From Nocardioides sp. (GTDB lineage Bacteria > Actinomycetota > Actinomycetes > Propionibacteriales > Nocardioidaceae): DNA of 24,978 nt. Positions 9,879 through 22,404 of the stretch are shown here, piece by piece; the stretch's first letter is position 1, and the number at the start of each line of letters is the position of its first letter. The stretch covers positions 1 through 24,978 of the forward strand of contig JARICB010000450.1 in the NCBI GenBank assembly GCA_029264225.1, written 5' to 3'. Both the position numbers and the translations under genes were made by a program. The notes below the pieces were generated by a model. That model made no database searches and was not told the origin of the DNA. It saw only the letters and a program-made list of their open reading frames with translations.

Positions 9879-11239
9879 CGACGTACCTCCTCGAACGAGC
9901 ACTGCTGCCCGACGGGTGGCGCGACGAGGTCGAGGTAACGGTCGAGGACGGCCGATTCGTGGAGGTTAGAGACCCGTTCACTAGGTTTGACCCCCAAGCA
10001 TTGGCCGACAACCTAGGGATTCACCGGTCAGCCGGTGAATCTGTGCGGGTCCCCGGCCTCACCATCCCCGGGCTAGCGAATACGCACAGCCACGCCTTCC
10101 ACCGAGCACTGAGGGGACGGACCCAAGCGGGTCAGGGGACGTTCTGGACCTGGCGCGAGCAGATGTACGCCGTCGCCGAGCGGCTCGATCCCGACGGCTA
10201 TCTCGAGCTCGCGACCGCCACCTTCCAGGAGATGGTGGCGGCGGGAATCACCTGCGTCGGCGAGTTCCACTACCTGCACCATGGGCGTGACGGGACGCCG
10301 TATACCGACCCGAACGAGATGGGTGCCGTGCTTGTCGAGGCGGCCCGCGTCGCCGGGCTTCGGATCACCGTGCTCGACACGCTCTACCTCTCCAGCGGTT
10401 TCGGCGCTGCACCGCGCGGTGCGCAGGTGCGGTACGCCGATGGTTCGGCGCTGGCGTGGGCCGAGCGCGTCTCCGCGCTGGTCGCCCCCGAGCACGCGAT
10501 CGTTGCCGGTGCGCTGCACTCCGTCCGGACCCTGCCGAAGGACCCTGCCGAGACGCTCAACCTGCTGGCTGGGTGGGCCGCAGACCGACCGTTCCACGTC
10601 CACCTCTCCGAGCAGGTTGCCGAGAACGAGGGTGCCTTGGCCGCCTACGGCCTGACCCCGACCCGGTTGCTCGCTGCCCACGGGCTCCTTGGCCCGATGA
10701 CCACGGCCGTGCACGCCACACATCTGTGTGATCGCGACATCGCCGAGCTCGGTTCCGCGTCAGCGTTCGTGAGCTTCTGTCCCACCACCGAGCGCGACCT
10801 CGGCGACGGTGTCGGTCCGAGCCGGCGGCTGGCCGACGCGGGGGCACGGTTGACCCTGGGCTCCGACAGCAATGCCGTGATCGACCTCTTCGAGGAGATG
10901 CGTGCCGTTGAGCTCGACGAACGGCTGGTCACCCAACGCCGGGGGCACTGGCGCTCCGCCGACCTGATCGAGGCCGCGACCACGACCGGGCACGCGAGTC
11001 TCGGCTGGCCCGATGCCGGCGCGATCGCGGTCGGTCAGCGCGCCGACCTGGTCACCCTCGACACCACCACGCCGCGCACGGCGGGCACCGGAGCCGACGA
11101 ACACACGGTCGTCTTCGCCGCCGGCGCCGGCGACGTCGTCTCGACCATGATCGAGGGGAGGCTCATCTTCCGGCACGATGATCGAGAAGAGATCGGCCGG
11201 GCACTGTCGCGGGCGATCGGGAAGGTGTGGGCCGAATGA
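9875..11239 (+). CDS. hutF: Formimidoylglutamate deiminase
   Basis: A 454-aa metal-dependent amidohydrolase that deiminates N-formimino-L-glutamate to N-formyl-L-glutamate plus ammonia. I start it at the GTG that overlaps the M20 stop; the open frame continues upstream only inside that gene. Family motifs are [16 protein letters not shown] (metal ligands His71 and His73), [36 protein letters not shown] and [16 protein letters not shown]. Length fits HutF and is longer than guanine deaminase or chlorohydrolase relatives. Residues about 33-57 look like an insertion against other HutF proteins, with codons rare in this genome (AGA, AGG, CTA, ATT, TCA) and two adjacent hairpins. Its stop overlaps hutI by ATGA. 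Confidence 0.93.
9981..10041 (+). repeat. Palindromic, rare-codon segment inside hutF
   Basis: Two adjacent inverted repeats lie in the coding sequence. CTAGGTT (9981-9987) pairs with AACCTAG (10010-10016), with a small inner stem CCAA/TTGG. Then GATTCACCGG (10018-10027) pairs perfectly with CCGGTGAATC (10032-10041) around TCAG. The segment is less GC-rich than its surroundings, uses rare codons, and falls where HutF proteins normally have a short linker. It keeps the reading frame open. Confidence 0.55.
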
Positions 11240-17297: not shown

Positions 17298-18425
17298 TCA
17301 GTAGTGCAACTGGTCGCGCACCTGGGCCTCGGTCAGGCCGTAGTCGGCCAGGTCGTAGTGATGCTTCGGAGCGCGTACGCCGCTGCGTGAACGCTGGAGC
17401 TCGTCGCTGATCGCGGCCTCGACCGACTCCGACCACACCAGCCCGGCGCTGTCGTAGACCTCTCGCACGGTGTCGAGCGGATTGCCGACCAGGTCGTCAT
17501 AGCCCACATCGATCACGTCAGCGCAGTGGGCGCTCGCGCTGAACGCCGCCTGCTCCCGGGCAAGCAGATCCAGCTGGGTCCGGCCGATGGTCTCGCCGAC
17601 GAACACCTCGGAGAAGCCCCGCGTCGACGCCTCGGCCAAGGAGCACATCGAGGCCGTGCACGCGACCGGATCTCGGTGCGTGACGATGATGACGGCGTCG
17701 GGATAGACCGACTTGATCGCGTCGAGAGCCATCAGGGAGCTGGGGTTCTTGAGCACCCACTGCTTGTCGGTGTCGTTGAAACCGATCAGTTGCAGGAGCG
17801 CCTTGTGCCGTTGGTAGGCCGGAGTCCAGTCCTGTCCTGCGAGCCAGGCCGAGTAGCCGGGGACGTAGGCCTGGGTCTCGAACGCGACCGAGCGGCCAGA
17901 GTGCTGGAGCAGTCGCCAGCACTCCTCGTGGGAGGCGGCGTCGGAGTAGTGGAGTCCGGCGAGCTCCGGGTTGGCCTCGTGGAACGCCGCGTAGCCGCCC
18001 TGCATCGCGCTGAACATCGGGTCGTCATCCCAGGTCTCGCGCGGCGGCCGGGGTTGCGGCAGGTCGGCCAGCCACTGCTCGAGCCCCTGGTGTGAGGGGT
18101 CGGCCGTGAGCAGACGCTGCAGCAGCGTCGTACCGGACCGGGGGAGTCCCACGATGAAGAGCGGTCGCTCGATCGCGACACCGACCGACGAGGGGTTGGC
18201 GATGAAGCCCTGCTGCGCCATCAGCTTGGCAACCAGCAGCCCCTTCAGCGATCCGCGCATCCGATAGTTGCCGACGCCGGTCAGCCCAGAGGTGGACGCG
18301 TAGTCCTCGAGCAGTACGCCGAGACCCTCCACGTGCGAGTCGTCGCCGAAGTCGCTCAGGCCGGTGGCTCGGGTCGCGGCGCCCACGATGTCGTCGTAGG
18401 AGCCGACGTCCTCGCGCTGCCTCAC
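17298..18425 (-). CDS. Sulfotransferase-family protein (Rv3529c-like)
   Basis: A 375-aa PAPS-dependent sulfotransferase-fold protein. The 5'-phosphosulfate loop is VGLPRSGTTLLQ (residues 92-103), and the 3'-phosphate region is KNPSSLMALDAIKSVYPDAV followed by VTHRDPV. The long N-terminal part before the loop and the YDDLVGNP and HHYDLADYGL segments match the bacterial family that includes, from memory, M. tuberculosis Rv3529c. It starts at GTG 18425, overlapping the SDR stop (GTGA), so the two form one operon from the promoter at 19208-19236. If the KstR assignment holds, a role in sterol or related lipid metabolism follows, but the acceptor is unknown. Confidence 0.85.
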   Translation of the reverse strand: MRQREDVGSYDDIVGAATRATGLSDFGDDSHVEGLGVLLEDYASTSGLTGVGNYRMRGSLKGLLVAKLMAQQGFIANPSSVGVAIERPLFIVGLPRSGTTLLQRLLTADPSHQGLEQWLADLPQPRPPRETWDDDPMFSAMQGGYAAFHEANPELAGLHYSDAASHEECWRLLQHSGRSVAFETQAYVPGYSAWLAGQDWTPAYQRHKALLQLIGFNDTDKQWVLKNPSSLMALDAIKSVYPDAVIIVTHRDPVACTASMCSLAEASTRGFSEVFVGETIGRTQLDLLAREQAAFSASAHCADVIDVGYDDLVGNPLDTVREVYDSAGLVWSESVEAAISDELQRSRSGVRAPKHHYDLADYGLTEAQVRDQLHY

Positions 18426-19201
18426 GAGTGGAACTCGCCGCAGTCCACGTTGAGCACCTGGCCGGTGACTGCACTGGCCAGGTCGCTCGCCAGGAACAAG
18501 GTGGCGCGAGCGATCTCATCGGGCGTGGCGAGCCGCTTGAGGTCGGTCGGCTCGGCCTTCTCCGCATAGACCTCGTCGTGGGTGCGACCCGACTCCGAGG
18601 CGATCCACTCGAAGTAGGCCTTGTTCACGTCTTCGTAGATGTAGGAAGGCGCCACGGAGTTGACCCGGATACCGCGCGGCCCCAACTCGGTGGCAAGGCT
18701 GGAGCTGAGGTGTTGAAGGGCGCCCTTGGAGAGCTTGTAGCCGCTGAACTCCGGCTGCGAGCTGTAGAGGACGCAGGAGTTGATGTTGACGATCGAGCCG
18801 CTCGATGCCGCGAGCGCGTCGGCGAACAGAGCACTGAGGCGCAGCGGCGCGAAGACGTTGGTCTCCTGCGCGGCGCGCAGTGCCTCCAGGCTCAGCGTGG
18901 TGATCGGATCCATCGGCGGAATGCCGAACGCGTTGTTGATCAGGCAGTCGACCTTGCCGAACTCGGCCAGCGCTGACTCGACCAGACGGGCTCGAGAGTC
19001 CTCGTCGGTGATGTCGGTGGCCACGACGAGAGCGCGGCGCCCGAGGTCGCGCACGGTTTCGGCCATCCGCTCGAGTCGCTTCTCCGTGCGGCTCACGAGC
19101 ACGAGGTCGGCGCCCATGCGGGCCGCCTCTTCGCCGAGGGCCCGACCCAGGCCGGGGCCTACGCCGGAGAGCACGATTACCTTGTCCTGAAGCAGCATCA
19201 T
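18422..19201 (-). CDS. SDR-family oxidoreductase (Rv3530c-like)
   Basis: A 259-aa classical short-chain dehydrogenase/reductase with an NAD(P)-binding Rossmann fold. The glycine-rich loop is SGVGPGLGRA (Gly13 to Gly19), ATDITDED follows beta-4 in the position usual for cofactor adenine contact, and LINNAFG supplies the NNA motif. The active site shows Ser142 (NINSC), Tyr155 and Lys159 (GYKLSKG). It is the first gene of the operon with the sulfotransferase. Start: two adjacent ATGs at 19201 and 19198. The -10 box ends only 6 nt before the first, so the mRNA is probably leaderless. A KstR-like operator overlaps this promoter. A hydroxysteroid or other alicyclic alcohol substrate would fit, but is not shown. 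Confidence 0.88.
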   Translation of the reverse strand: MMLLQDKVIVLSGVGPGLGRALGEEAARMGADLVLVSRTEKRLERMAETVRDLGRRALVVATDITDEDSRARLVESALAEFGKVDCLINNAFGIPPMDPITTLSLEALRAAQETNVFAPLRLSALFADALAASSGSIVNINSCVLYSSQPEFSGYKLSKGALQHLSSSLATELGPRGIRVNSVAPSYIYEDVNKAYFEWIASESGRTHDEVYAEKAEPTDLKRLATPDEIARATLFLASDLASAVTGQVLNVDCGEFHS

Positions 19202-19207
19202 GCCCCG

Positions 19208-19236
19208 AGACTAGAACGTGTTCTACGTCATGTCAC
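19208..19236 (-). promoter_or_regulatory. Promoter with KstR-like operator, leaderless start of the SDR operon
   Basis: On the minus strand a -35 box GTGACA (19231-19236), a 17-bp spacer and a -10 box TAGTCT (19208-19213) point to a transcription start at or next to the SDR ATG (19201). The spacer and -10 contain TAGAACACGTTCTA (19212-19225), which fits the published KstR consensus TnnAACnnGTTnnA at every fixed base and is symmetric except for its central two bases. Binding there would block RNA polymerase. Confidence 0.7.
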
Positions 19237-19253
19237 GGTATCGGGCCCCTTGG

Positions 19254-19330
19254 GCAGCTGTGCCCCCACCTGCAGCTCACTGCCCCCGCAGCTCGCTGCC
19301 CCCACCTGCAGGGCGCTGCCCCCACTGCAG
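19254..19330. repeat. Imperfect tandem repeat, four units of 16-20 bp
   Basis: Four consecutive units each begin with GCAG and contain a run of five C: 19254-19271, 19272-19287, 19288-19307 and 19308-19326. The fuller form reads GCAGCTCGCTGCCCCCACCT. Unit length varies, the core is low-complexity and there are no unique spacers, so this is not a CRISPR array. It lies between the SDR promoter and the perfect inverted repeat. Confidence 0.55.
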
Positions 19331-19331
19331 G

Positions 19332-19387
19332 GTTACCGAACAGTCATGTCGTCCGGCGACGCTGGAACGACCGGACTGTTCGGTAAC
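19332..19387. repeat. 14-bp perfect inverted repeat downstream of the DUF1214-like gene
   Basis: GTTACCGAACAGTC (19332-19345) and GACTGTTCGGTAAC (19374-19387) are exact inverse complements. The 28-nt centre adds a five-pair inner stem, GTCGT (19348-19352) with ACGAC (19367-19371). The element starts 34 bp beyond the stop of the minus-strand gene ending at 19422. Between them the motif TGGGCGAGCTCGG occurs twice, 15 bp apart (19394-19406 and 19409-19421). A terminator, a regulator site with two half-sites, or a small mobile element are all possible. Confidence 0.55.
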
Positions 19388-19421
19388 TCGGGTTGGGCGA
19401 GCTCGGGGTGGGCGAGCTCGG

Positions 19422-20567
19422 TCAGCTCAGCATCCGGCGAGCCACTCCCACTTGCCGCGCCGCGATGCGCCCGGCGTACTGCTCCGGCGACACCTGTTGA
19501 GCTGCCAATTGAGTCACCTGGGAGTGCACGTCGGCCAGCGCCATCAGTTCCACCGTGGGTCCGTCCGAGGCGCCGAGTTCACGCGCGACCCGCTGCCAGC
19601 GCAGCATCATTACACCGGCAGGGTGGCCGGTGGTCTCCAGCCAGTTGGCGATCCCCGGGTCCTGCTCGCTGATGACGTAACGCAGCATTCCGTCCTCGTC
19701 CACGTGCGACTGGGCGCGTGTCAGCGAGGTCTGGTGGTGTTCGTAGTCGGTGGAGACATACCACTTGGAGCCGATCTGGATGGCCTGGTACGCCGCATCG
19801 TCACTCGCCGGCACCGTGACCACCAGAGCCTGGTCGGGCTCGAGTTCGTAGTGACCGATCGAGCTGAACTGCGAGGCCAGCCCCCCCGGAGTCGACTTCG
19901 GGACGGTCAGGGTGTTGACCGATTCCTTGTAGGTGAACCACTCGGGGAACGCGAACCAGGTCTTGATCCGGCCGACCAGCATCTTCGCGGCGACGCCGTA
20001 CCTCTTGTCGATCCGGTCGATCGTGACCGGACCCCGCGCGACGCCGGCGGTGTCGAGACGCTGCAGACGGATGGTGCCCCGGTCCTCGGTGTTCCAGTCG
20101 GAGTAGACCTCGCGCACGATCAGGGTCGATCCCTTGCGCAGCCCGAGCTCGGGACCGAAGTGCCACTCGAAGGTGCCGTCGTCGGCGATCTCGAGCTCAC
20201 GATCGTCGAAGGCGGCCAGGGTCTCGGGGGCGCCGGTGTCGGTATAGGTGCCGGCCATGATCTGGAAGGACAGGTCTGCGGTGGTGCCGCGACGCCCGGA
20301 GACGACGTAGGACGCGCCCTCGCTCAGATAGGCGTTGAAGTAGATCGCGTCCGGATTGTCGAGGCCCTGGCGGGAGTACTGGTGCGTCGGGTTGATCAGG
20401 ACCGGGTGCTCGAGGTCGTAGTCGAAGGCCATCTGGATGGCTGAGCGGATTGAGCCACCGAGGTAGTCGAGCCCCTCGGCCAGTTCCTGTTCACTGATCT
20501 CGAACGGCGGGTTGCGGATCAGGCGCTCGGCCTCCGCGACGGCGTCCCGGAACGCCTCCAGGCTCAA
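19422..20567 (-). CDS. DUF1214-like protein (Rv3531c-like), unknown function
   Basis: A 381-aa protein without a signal peptide or membrane segment. The central part, including NPDAIYFNAYLSEGASYVVS then GRRGTTADLSFQIM and FDDRELEIADDGTFEWHFGP, resembles DUF1214/DUF1254-type beta domains found beside lipid-catabolism genes. The C-terminal half is mixed helix and strand, with NWLETTGHPAGVMMLRWQRV near the end. The start is a TTG at 20567 that overlaps the TGA of the LLM oxidoreductase gene (TTGA), showing translational coupling. By length and neighbours it matches mycobacterial Rv3531c, which I recall as a KstR-regulon gene of unknown function; this identity needs a search. Confidence 0.7.
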   Translation of the reverse strand: MSLEAFRDAVAEAERLIRNPPFEISEQELAEGLDYLGGSIRSAIQMAFDYDLEHPVLINPTHQYSRQGLDNPDAIYFNAYLSEGASYVVSGRRGTTADLSFQIMAGTYTDTGAPETLAAFDDRELEIADDGTFEWHFGPELGLRKGSTLIVREVYSDWNTEDRGTIRLQRLDTAGVARGPVTIDRIDKRYGVAAKMLVGRIKTWFAFPEWFTYKESVNTLTVPKSTPGGLASQFSSIGHYELEPDQALVVTVPASDDAAYQAIQIGSKWYVSTDYEHHQTSLTRAQSHVDEDGMLRYVISEQDPGIANWLETTGHPAGVMMLRWQRVARELGASDGPTVELMALADVHSQVTQLAAQQVSPEQYAGRIAARQVGVARRMLS

Positions 20568-21442
20568 CGGTTCACCTTGGCGATGATCGACTCGGCGTAG
20601 CGCTCGAGGTTGGCGACCTTCTTCTCCAGCGGCTCCGGGTCAGCGCCCATGATGTAGGGCACCCGGAAGCCGATGATGCAGTCGGTGACGCCCTTGTCTG
20701 CGAGCCGCTTGATCCCGTCGAGGTCGTAGGCGTCGTAGGAGATCGCGTGCACCTCGAAGTTGTCGCGGGTATCGCCCTCCTCGGCGCGGATCTCGTTGAG
20801 ACGGACGAGCAACCTGTCCAGTTCCTCACCGTCGCCACCCGCATGCATCCATCCGTCGCCCTTGCGGACGGCGCGACGCAGGGCGGCGTCGCTGTGGCCG
20901 CCGACCAGCAGCGGGATGGGCTTGCTCGGCGCGGGCGACTGCTTGATTTCGGGGAAGGAGTAGAACTCGCCCTCATAGCCGAAGAACTCCCCCGACGTCA
21001 GCCCGCGCAGGATGTCCATGCACTCGTCCATCCGCTTGCCGCGACGCGCCCACGGGATTCCCATGGCGATGAAGTCCTCGGGCCACGGTGAGAGCCCGAC
21101 GCCGAGACCGAGGCGGTTCTCGGAAAGGAACGCGATCGACGAGGCCTGCTTGGCGACCAGTACCGGCGGTCGGACCGGCAGTTTGAGTACGAACGGGGTC
21201 AACCGCAGGGTGGTCGTCACCGCGGCCAGGTGGGTCACCAGGGTCATCGTCTCGATGAACTCCTTGTCCTCGAGGAACGCCCGGTCGCCGGTGTCGGTGT
21301 AGGGGTACGTCGAGTCGGACTCGCGGGGGTAGATGAGCGAGTCGGCGACCGTCATCGAGGTGTAGCCGGCGGCCTCGGCTGCCTGAGCGAGCGGGGCGTA
21401 GTACTTCGCCTGAGTCATCGCTTCGGCGTAGGTGAATCGCAT
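20564..21442 (-). CDS. LLM-class F420-dependent oxidoreductase
   Basis: A 292-aa luciferase-like (beta/alpha)8-barrel enzyme, most likely using the deazaflavin cofactor F420. It begins MRFTYAEAMTQAKYYAPLAQ. Typical blocks are AAEAAGYTSMTVADS, LAAVTTTLRLTPFVLKLPVR, LGLGVGLSPWPEDFIAMGIP then WARRGKRMDECMDILRGL, and PIPLLVGGHSDAALRRAVRKGDGW. The start at ATG 21442 has AGGAGAG about 4 nt upstream; the open frame reaches further upstream but without a comparable site. It leads the operon with the DUF1214-like gene and is divergent from the NTF2-like gene. A KstR-like operator lies 32 bp upstream of the start codon. Oxidation of a sterol-derived or fatty intermediate is a context guess. Confidence 0.85.
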   Translation of the reverse strand: MRFTYAEAMTQAKYYAPLAQAAEAAGYTSMTVADSLIYPRESDSTYPYTDTGDRAFLEDKEFIETMTLVTHLAAVTTTLRLTPFVLKLPVRPPVLVAKQASSIAFLSENRLGLGVGLSPWPEDFIAMGIPWARRGKRMDECMDILRGLTSGEFFGYEGEFYSFPEIKQSPAPSKPIPLLVGGHSDAALRRAVRKGDGWMHAGGDGEELDRLLVRLNEIRAEEGDTRDNFEVHAISYDAYDLDGIKRLADKGVTDCIIGFRVPYIMGADPEPLEKKVANLERYAESIIAKVNR

Positions 21443-21470
21443 TGTCTCTCCTGACAGGTGGTCGTGCTGA

Positions 21471-21488
21471 AGGGTAGAACGCGTTTCA
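21471..21488 (-). promoter_or_regulatory. Second KstR-like operator with -10 box, divergent promoter region
   Basis: TAGAACGCGTTTCA (21475-21488) fits TnnAACnnGTTnnA at all fixed bases. On the minus strand the operator's last TA forms the start of a -10 box TACCCT (21471-21476), the same geometry as at the SDR promoter. A poor -35 (TGGCAG) lies 17 bp upstream. The site is also 21 bp before the plus-strand NTF2-like start, so one operator could control both directions. Confidence 0.6.
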
Positions 21489-21509
21489 GTTTCCTGCCAC
21501 AGTTGGTCC

Positions 21510-21932
21510 ATGGACCTGTCCGAGCTGAGTGACCGCCAAGAGATCACCGACCTCATCACTCGTTATACGCGCGCGGTGGATACTCGCGCCTACGACGACC
21601 TGCACGGTGTCTTCACCCCGGATGCGGTGCTGGACTACTCGCAGCTGGGCGGGCCCAAGGACACGCCGAGCGTCGTCGTGCCATGGATCGAGGAGGGGTT
21701 GGCCGGTTTCGATCGGATCCAGCACCTGATCGGACAGGTCTCGATCGAACTGGCGGGCGACACCGCGACGGCGACCGCCTACTTCACGAACCCGATGGTG
21801 AGCACCCGCCCGGACGGCACCGAACAGCTCTGGGAGGTCGGTGGCTACTACCACCACGACCTGATCCGCACGCCCGACGGTTGGCGCTCGCGCGGCATCG
21901 TTGACGAGATGATCTGGTCGCGGGGCTTCTGA
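21510..21932 (+). CDS. NTF2-like / SnoaL-type protein
   Basis: A 140-aa alpha+beta-cone protein of the NTF2-like superfamily, which includes ketosteroid isomerase, scytalone dehydratase and SnoaL cyclases. The start MDLSELSDRQEITDLITRYT then RAVDTRAYDDLHGVFTPDAV is the standard first helix and hydrophobic-pocket segment. LWEVGGYYHHDLIRTPDGWR then SRGIVDEMIW gives the last strands. Candidate acid or base residues are Asp24, Asp28 and the His pair in YYHHD. The next ATG begins 1 bp after its stop, so it is cotranscribed with the Ddn-like gene. The KstR-like operator 21 bp upstream makes a steroid or polycyclic substrate attractive, but it may equally be a dehydratase. Confidence 0.82.
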   Translation: MDLSELSDRQEITDLITRYTRAVDTRAYDDLHGVFTPDAVLDYSQLGGPKDTPSVVVPWIEEGLAGFDRIQHLIGQVSIELAGDTATATAYFTNPMVSTRPDGTEQLWEVGGYYHHDLIRTPDGWRSRGIVDEMIWSRGF

Positions 21933-21933
21933 G

Positions 21934-22404
21934 ATGGACAAGCCGGCCGGACTCAACGCCCCCTACGCCCGCACTTTCCTGAAGTACCTGGGCCGCGCCC
22001 ACGTAGCCTGCTACCGCCGCACCGGTGGGCGGATCGGCGGGAGATGGCGCGTAGGGGCAGCCCTGCGCAAGCCGGTACCGATCCTGCTGCTCGACCATGT
22101 CGGCCGCACGAGCGGGGCGCCGTACACGACGCCGTTGCTCCACCTGCGCGATGGCCAGGACGCGATCGTCGTGGCGAGTTCTGGGGGGATGGACCGGGAA
22201 CCGCAGTGGTATCGAAACCTGATGGCGCACCCCGACACCTCGATCCAGATCGGTAGCACGGTGCGGAAGGTGCATGCCCGCACTGCCGGCGCCACCGAGC
22301 GTGCCCGACTCTGGCCGCTCCTGGTCGACGTCTATGCCGACTTCGCCTCCTACGAGACGTGGACGGATCGTGAGATCCCTGTCGTGATCTGCGAGCCTCG
22401 GTGA
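21934..22404 (+). CDS. Ddn-type F420-dependent nitroreductase-family oxidoreductase
   Basis: A 156-aa split-barrel protein of the deazaflavin-dependent nitroreductase (Ddn) family, which uses reduced F420 to reduce quinones or other acceptors, usually at the membrane surface. Diagnostic segments are VPILLLDHVGRTSGAPYTTP, the strand AIVVASSGG, then EPQWYRNLMAHPDTSIQIG. The basic N-terminal region (ACYRRTGGRIGGRWRVG) probably contacts membrane or nucleic-acid-like cofactor phosphates. It is the second gene of a pair with the NTF2-like protein, 1 bp apart. The neighbouring operon also encodes an F420-type LLM enzyme, so two F420 enzymes share this control region. Confidence 0.87.
   Translation: MDKPAGLNAPYARTFLKYLGRAHVACYRRTGGRIGGRWRVGAALRKPVPILLLDHVGRTSGAPYTTPLLHLRDGQDAIVVASSGGMDREPQWYRNLMAHPDTSIQIGSTVRKVHARTAGATERARLWPLLVDVYADFASYETWTDREIPVVICEPR

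What the first reader, a model, noticed from the sequence alone, without database searches (positions are those of the whole stretch)
19208..19236. KstR-type operator in a leaderless promoter of the SDR-sulfotransferase operon
TAGAACACGTTCTA (minus strand) fits the KstR consensus TnnAACnnGTTnnA at every fixed position and overlaps a good -35/-10 pair (GTGACA, 17 bp, TAGTCT) whose predicted start falls on the SDR ATG. KstR is the TetR-family repressor of cholesterol catabolism in mycobacteria and rhodococci. A precise match in the right place suggests sterol-controlled expression here.
Basis: partly seen in the sequence, partly recalled or inferred. Interest (0 to 1): 0.72.

Follow-up and report, generated by a model that had tools for sequence, protein, structure and literature searches.

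The report
Sterol-repressor site before sulfotransferase operon
A Nocardioides-like bacterium carries what looks like a genuine binding site for the cholesterol-breakdown repressor KstR right at the start of a two-gene operon that includes a sulfotransferase, and related bacteria hint that sterols may switch on a sulfate-attaching step with no assigned role.

Summary
TAGAACACGTTCTA (19212-19225, minus) scores 26.2 bits on a matrix built from 47 published KstR sites, equal to their best; the window holds one other hit (21475, 22.0 bits). The genome, a Nocardioides relative, has a KstR homologue, and matching sites lie beside kstD, hsaA, fadE-like, fadD-like genes and kstR itself. In 37 same-genus genomes strict motif and SDR follow kstR. 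In 17 of 18 relatives with the site an in-frame start codon lies 10-11 nt behind the operator, and a TAnnnT overlaps it in 18 of 18, as a leaderless promoter predicts. The SDR site is not universal: present in 16 of 17 relatives where SDR-sulfotransferase has left the upstream operon, 2 of 24 otherwise. Outside the genus one operator precedes the whole 381-aa protein-SDR-sulfotransferase triad (19 of 22). Unexpected: where cysD-cysNC (PAPS synthesis) sits beside the triad, it has its own KstR-type site (4 of 5; 0 of 53 other cysD loci). The operon is a new member of the KstR regulon; a sterol-induced sulfonation branch is the novel, untested reading.

The parts
19212..19225 (-). KstR-type operator TAGAACACGTTCTA
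   Evidence: 26.2 bits; site before the SDR in 18 of 41 relatives
19208..19213 (-). -10 element TAGTCT; its TA is the last TA of the operator
   Evidence: TAnnnT in 18 of 18 relatives with the site
19231..19236 (-). -35-like GTGACA, 17-nt spacer
   Evidence: not found by the generic scan; inferred
18422..19201 (-). SDR oxidoreductase, first gene of the operon; start codon 10 nt behind the operator
   Evidence: (NF005909, 370 bits, cut-off 258)
17298..18425 (-). Sulfotransfer_3 sulfotransferase, Stf1-like; overlaps the SDR stop
   Evidence: PF13469, 172.8 bits; 2zq5, 383 bits
19422..20567 (-). 381-aa protein of unknown function, upstream member of the conserved triad (position of Rv3531c)
20564..21442 (-). 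F420-dependent LLM-class oxidoreductase; start probably the ATG at 21442, not the listed 21559
   Evidence: TIGR03619; matches in 10 of 21 relatives begin at residue 40, in 6 at residue 1; start inferred
21475..21488 (+). second KstR-type operator TAGAACGCGTTTCA between divergent genes
   Evidence: 22.0 bits; a site of 14 bits or more between the two genes in 21 of 21 Nocardioidaceae loci
21510..21932 (+). SnoaL-like protein, divergent from the LLM gene
   Evidence: PF13577
21934..22404 (+). F420H2-dependent reductase family protein behind the SnoaL gene
   Evidence: PF04075

Best explanation
19212-19225 is an operator of the genome's own KstR. A KstR dimer on it covers the upstream edge of the -10 element of a leaderless promoter and keeps RNA polymerase off; when sterol side-chain degradation yields the steroid acyl-CoA effector, KstR lets go and the SDR-sulfotransferase mRNA starts at or next to the SDR ATG. 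The neighbouring 381-aa/LLM operon and the divergent SnoaL genes answer through the second operator at 21475, so the whole block 17298-22404 is sterol-inducible. The SDR site arose, or was kept, because here SDR-sulfotransferase is separated by 220 nt from the upstream gene. Shown here: sites, KstR homologue, candidate regulon, conservation, spacing. Inferred: binding, repression, effector, start site.
For: Matrix score equal to the best published sites. KstR homologue with TetR_C_20 and the helix VALGTLYRYFPSK found in 27 of 27 same-genus KstR hits, own included, with an upstream site (L057:9534, 19.1 bits). Sites of the same type beside kstD and hsaA (L049), an Rv3520c-type F420 enzyme and a ChsH2-like OB protein (L043), a fused acyl-CoA dehydrogenase (L045), FadD (L048), a GMC oxidoreductase (L042), a thiolase and a weakly matched P450 (L047). 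Motif follows kstR: 3 or more strict readings in 24 of 27 kstR-positive, at most 1 in 10 of 10 kstR-negative same-genus genomes; SDR hit in 23 of 27 against 0 of 10. In-frame start 10-11 nt behind the operator in 17 of 18, TAnnnT in 18 of 18. Triad order in 22 of 22 loci examined outside the genus, operator before it in 19 of 22. Published KstR binding at Rv3531c/Rv3532 (PMC1995591).
Against: 23 of 41 relatives lack a site at the SDR, and one of the 17 separated cases (L064) lacks it. In L078 the ATG 11 nt behind the operator is out of frame with the SDR, whose start lies 57 nt behind. The KstR homologue scores 265.3 bits, under NCBIfam's 280 cut-off. Some own-genome sites stand by genes with no evident sterol role (2-oxoacid:ferredoxin oxidoreductase/sulfate transporter, DUF6801, pyridoxal kinase, thioredoxin-reductase-like). 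A second KstR-like TetR (C70, nearest 3bjb) could share the operator. No RNA or binding data; generic promoter scan negative. Genome 83.86% complete.
Confidence: 0.87

Rival explanations
1. The operator is real but is bound mainly by the KstR-like paralogue encoded on C70, so the operon answers to another sterol or acyl-CoA signal.
For: The paralogue keeps the LYRYFPSK core and shares TetR_C_20; its best solved match is 3bjb, then KstR.
Against: No site of 8 bits or more in its 3.1-kb locus, while the KstR homologue has one before its own gene, as do 25 of 27 same-genus kstR loci.
Confidence: 0.07
2. The promoter is real and KstR-repressed but not leaderless: transcription starts upstream and the SDR mRNA has a short leader, or the SDR is read mainly from the upstream operon.
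For: Only 220 nt separate it from the upstream gene; 22 of 24 relatives with a short gap have no SDR site; the hexamers are poor; L078 has its SDR start 57 nt behind the operator.
Against: In-frame start at 10-11 nt in 17 of 18 and an overlapping TAnnnT in 18 of 18 relatives; an inverted repeat at 19332-19387 lies in the gap and might stop read-through.
Confidence: 0.13
3. Chance match or a site for an unrelated regulator.
For: The degenerate consensus is common (28 against 17 in the control).
Against: 26.2 bits against a simulated maximum of 22.1 in 400 windows; position, spacing and co-occurrence with kstR.
Confidence: 0.01

Closest known systems
KstR regulon of mycobacteria (Kendall et al. 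2007, PMC1995591; passages and section 10 read)
   Same: Same palindrome TAGAAC(N2)GTTCTA, overlap with -10, site before its own gene, and a site with positive EMSA at Rv3531c/Rv3532, by position the upstream gene of the matching triad.
   Different: Here the SDR carries a second operator of its own and the 381-aa gene sits behind an LLM gene; the regulator is a diverged homologue.
KstR-type kstD3 promoter of Rhodococcus ruber (PMC5348764, passages read)
   Same: KstR-type sites at a promoter proposed there to be leaderless.
   Different: Different genes; there the promoter was reported to work in Rhodococcus, here nothing was measured.
KstR regulon of Nocardioides simplex (PMC7807495, passages read)
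   Same: Probably the same genus; KstR sites predicted in 71 operons, 27 of them induced by phytosterol.
   Different: A text search of the main text finds no 'sulfo' or 'sulfate'; its supplementary tables, which list the operons, were not seen.
Stf1 (Rv3529c; name from PMC8882603, one passage); PDB 2zq5 (label STF1 recalled)
   Same: 383 bits over 370 residues to 2zq5; same place behind an oxidoreductase and the triad gene.
   Different: Substrate unknown from any of my calls; only homology.

Membership tests
KstR operator | TnnAACnnGTTnnA palindrome | tested here: met
KstR operator | overlaps the -10 of a promoter | tested here: met
   TAGTCT overlaps in sequence and TAnnnT in 18 of 18 relatives with the site; promoter activity itself inferred
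KstR operator | bound by KstR in vitro | not testable with these tools
   no binding data for this site; the Rv3531c/Rv3532 site was bound in PMC1995591
KstR repressor (C419 protein) | over NCBIfam NF033703 equivalog cut-off (280 bits) | tested here: not met
   265.3 bits over the full model; therefore called a KstR homologue that probably works like KstR
KstR repressor (C419 protein) | TetR_N plus TetR_C_20 and best solved matches KstR | tested here: met
KstR repressor (C419 protein) | operator before its own gene | tested here: met
   L057:9534, 19.1 bits, 120 nt before the assumed TTG start
KstR repressor (C419 protein) | operators beside sterol-catabolism genes | tested here: met
   kstD, hsaA and others
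KstR repressor (C419 protein) | release by a steroid acid or its CoA thioester | not testable with these tools
   stated for KstR in a passage of PMC5348764
Stf1-like sulfotransferase | Sulfotransfer_3 domain over cut-off | tested here: met
   172.8 bits, cut-off 27
Stf1-like sulfotransferase | PAPS-dependent activity | not testable with these tools
   GLPRSGTT loop present; activity unknown
Leaderless promoter | transcription start at the start codon | tested here: inconclusive
   spacing conserved in 17 of 18; no 5'-end data

The most novel reading that the evidence does not exclude
KstR controls a sulfonation branch of sterol metabolism: sterol induces the Stf1-like sulfotransferase with its SDR and 381-aa partner and, in some actinobacteria, the PAPS supply as well. 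On a Tsukamurella plasmid and in three other loci (two unnamed genera) cysNC-cysD stands divergently beside the triad, and the only two sites of 14 bits or more in each 18-25 kb stretch lie before cysD and before the triad (in L253 both in one shared 149-nt gap). In the genus of the window a KstR-type site stands between a 2-oxoacid:ferredoxin oxidoreductase gene and a sulfate-transporter gene in 12 of 17 kstR-positive but 0 of 7 kstR-negative genomes with that gene pair (30 of 36 hit genomes examined). The SDR would make or expose a hydroxyl that the sulfotransferase sulfonates.
Probability: 0.35. Interest if true: 0.75.

Novelty: new member of a known kind. Interest (0 to 1): 0.48.

Why it matters
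The site is one more KstR operator, but it ties a conserved, unexplained gene triad (381-aa protein, SDR, Stf1-like sulfotransferase) to the sterol regulon in Nocardioides and in other families of the class, in line with the published Rv3531c site, and in several lineages links it with PAPS synthesis. That turns the question of what Stf1-type enzymes sulfonate into a direct test: look for sulfonated steroid intermediates in sterol-grown cells. It also suggests how operators follow genes: where the SDR pair has left its operon, a KstR promoter with near-fixed spacing stands in front of it.

Tried and rejected
Degenerate pattern as evidence by itself: rejected (28 matches against 17 in the reversed control; many inside ORFs). 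My simple gene caller also marked several good sites as inside ORFs, 21475 among them, because it takes the first start codon. Generic promoter scan: none found in the region. LLM start at 21559, which would put the second operator inside the gene: thought unlikely, since matches in 10 of 21 relatives begin at residue 40, but 6 of 21 align from residue 1, so it is not settled. Site near the C70 paralogue: none. KstR site before the genome's own cysD: none of 14 bits or more (L255). Cluster L251 (second copy in G164): same gene order with cysD-cysNC but no site, which speaks against a universal rule. My early guess that the organism was an acidimicrobial one was wrong: named contigs, and G005, whose contig length and SDR equal those of Nocardioides allogilvus, place it with Nocardioides.

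Literature: KstR with sulfotransferase and cholesterol gave one paper, on P450s, whose two passages do not link them; KstR with Acidimicrobi and steroid none; KstR, cysD, sulfate adenylyltransferase and Stf1 (any two) gave 165 papers, 12 listed, none opened, two of them (PMC7846781, PMC3916317) holding both KstR and cysD; sulfotransferase, steroid catabolism and actinobacteria one, listing only. PMC4810484, PMC5790920 and PMC3141025 were searched for passages only; PMC3068626 was searched for the triad and sulfate terms with no occurrence.

Limits: loci came from the best matches (30 loci, 44 genomes with hits; 30 loci, 36 genomes with hits; 30 loci, fewer than the places listed). L082 was dropped as a duplicate of L062, L074 for lack of an SDR, L081 as the window itself, before the counts. 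L104, a second, 46% SDR of G003 without a site, was left out. Species in the two sets may be close relatives, so the counts are not independent.

Full report
What was claimed. A KstR-type operator overlapping a leaderless promoter of an SDR-sulfotransferase operon at 19208-19236. One search confirms every base and coordinate: operator 19212-19225, TAGTCT 19213-19208, GTGACA 19236-19231, SDR ATG at 19201.

Is it more than chance? The loose consensus is not enough: 28 genome sites against 17 for the reversed pattern. A matrix from the 47 mycobacterial sites in Table 3 of PMC1995591 (section 10 read) gives 26.2 bits for 19212, the top published score, and 22.0 for 21475; nothing else in the window reaches 6 bits. 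In 400 simulated windows four sites reached 16 bits, the best 22.1. TNRAACRYGTTCTA: 8 forward and 0 reversed-control readings in this genome.

Is there a KstR? Among 24 TetR_N hits one protein, on contig C419, matches solved chains named KstR at 195.4 bits and NCBIfam KstR at 265.3 bits, under the 280-bit equivalog cut-off, with TetR_C_20. It is best called a KstR homologue. A 19.1-bit site lies 120 nt before its assumed start. Of 27 same-genus kstR loci, own included, 25 have a site of 14 bits or more within 190 nt upstream, and all 27 share VALGTLYRYFPSK. A second, more distant KstR-like TetR is on C70.

Regulon. I fetched 20 contigs of this genome, 19 because they hold a pattern match and C442 for a TetR. 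Nineteen sites of 15 bits or more on those contigs and the window stand beside kstD, hsaA, an Rv3520c-type F420 enzyme, a ChsH2-like OB protein, FadD, a fused acyl-CoA dehydrogenase, an SDR, a thiolase, a weakly matched P450, a GMC oxidoreductase, an alpha/beta hydrolase and kstR, but also beside genes with no evident sterol role: 2-oxoacid:ferredoxin oxidoreductase and sulfate transporter, DUF6801, pyridoxal kinase, a thioredoxin-reductase-like protein, a methyltransferase, Ku, RecO, an antiporter, a WS/DGAT protein. Some of these are the other side of a divergent pair. Because the contigs were chosen for a match, 19 is not a whole-genome count. Matches of other types (TTGAAC, TTCAAC and the like) lie mostly inside ORFs.

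Co-occurrence. Of 37 same-genus genomes, own included, 27 have a KstR hit at E 1e-40. Strict-motif readings (both strands added) are 3 or more in 24 of these 27 and at most 1 in the 10 others (Fisher p 8e-7). The SDR (E 1e-60) is found in 23 of the 27 and in none of the 10. None of the 21 genomes of other families had a KstR or SDR hit at these limits. Three kstR-positive genomes (G021, G026, G028) have no strict motif. These genomes are related, so the p values overstate independence.

Where the operator sits. In 21 named Nocardioidaceae loci the LLM/SnoaL divergent gap has a site of 14 bits or more in 21 of 21, the lowest 14.0. At the SDR, 18 of 41 non-identical relatives have one. It depends on the distance from the 381-aa gene: 2 of 24 when the gap is 100 nt or less, 16 of 17 when larger or when that gene is not adjacent (p 2e-8). 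The window, gap 220 nt, is of the second kind. In 17 of the 18, and in the window, an in-frame start codon begins 10 or 11 nt behind the operator; in 18 of 18 the operator's last TA begins a TAnnnT. The exception is L078, where 23-nt repeats follow the operator, the ATG at 11 nt is out of frame, and the SDR start lies 57 nt behind. Outside the genus, 22 of 22 loci examined keep the order 381-aa protein, SDR, sulfotransferase; 19 of 22 have an operator before the first gene and none has one at the SDR. So one operator for the triad looks ancestral and the SDR operator a later addition. The Mtb listing Rv3531c, Rv3530c (possible oxidoreductase), Rv3529c (PMC6429209 table passage) and Rv3529c = Stf1 (PMC8882603 passage) fits; that the window genes are their orthologues rests on order and on 2zq5, whose label STF1 I recall.

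Mechanism. Shown: sites, homologue, candidate regulon, spacing. From print: KstR binds as a dimer, its site overlaps the -10 and it represses (PMC1995591 passages); it is released by 3-oxo-4-cholestenoic acid or a CoA thioester (PMC5348764 passage), and that paper proposes a leaderless kstD3 with KstR-type sites at its promoter. Inferred: the same happens at 19212.

Unexpected link to sulfate. A plasmid of Tsukamurella tyrosinosolvens carries the triad beside cysD and an APS kinase-GTPase fusion. Only two sites of 12 bits or more lie in the 25 kb, one before the triad (22.1) and one before cysD (20.6), the latter between TTGACA and TAATCT; 200 simulations gave two sites of 16 bits and none of 20. 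Three more clusters in two unnamed genera show a site before each operon, the cysD ones weaker (14.7 to 17.5 bits); a fifth, L251, has the genes but no site. Among 58 cysD loci, 4 of 5 triad-adjacent copies have a site of 14 bits or more within 110 nt upstream and 0 of 53 others one of 12 bits or more within 200 nt. The window's genome has no site of 14 bits before its cysD but has a 26.2-bit site between a 2-oxoacid:ferredoxin oxidoreductase gene and a sulfate-transporter gene, kept in 12 of 17 kstR-positive and 0 of 7 kstR-negative genomes with that gene pair (p 0.005); which of the two genes it serves is open. Together this favours a real PAPS-dependent role for the sulfotransferase under sterol control; its substrate is unknown.

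Verdict. Observation confirmed; interpretation supported; new member of the known KstR regulon, with a testable sulfonation link that my searches did not find described (most subscription papers are not in the library, and one search was not read beyond its listing).

Noticed in passing
L046:2169-2182 (own contig C203): Perfect KstR-type site between a 2-oxoacid:ferredoxin oxidoreductase alpha gene and a sulfate ABC transporter binding-protein gene; present in 12 of 17 kstR-positive and 0 of 7 kstR-negative genus genomes with that gene pair. I recognise no counterpart in the Kendall table.
   Followed up: partly
L132:8997-9010 and 9990-10003; L250, L252, L253: KstR-type sites before both cysD-cysNC and the 381-aa/SDR/sulfotransferase triad; an IclR-type regulator gene lies between them in three of the four.
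   Followed up: yes
L251 (G164 contig C10): Second copy of the same sulfonation-like cluster without any KstR-type site of 14 bits.
   Followed up: no
G018, G021, G026, G028, G036: kstR kept with a site before it but few or no other strict motifs: a contracted regulon or drifted operators.
   Followed up: partly
own contig C70 (L020): KstR-like TetR paralogue nearest PDB 3bjb, no KstR-type site nearby.
   Followed up: partly
19332-19387: 21-nt, 90% inverted repeat with 14 nt between the arms, between the 381-aa gene and the SDR operator; possible transcription barrier or another operator.
   Followed up: no
19261-19328: Degenerate tandem repeats spaced 16-20 nt (TGCCCCCACCTGCAG) just upstream of the SDR promoter.
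   Followed up: no
L078:9237-9320: Behind the operator a 23-nt unit with an ATG is repeated; the first ATG (11 nt) is out of frame with the SDR and each reading overlaps the next ATG by ATGA, as in translational coupling.
   Followed up: partly
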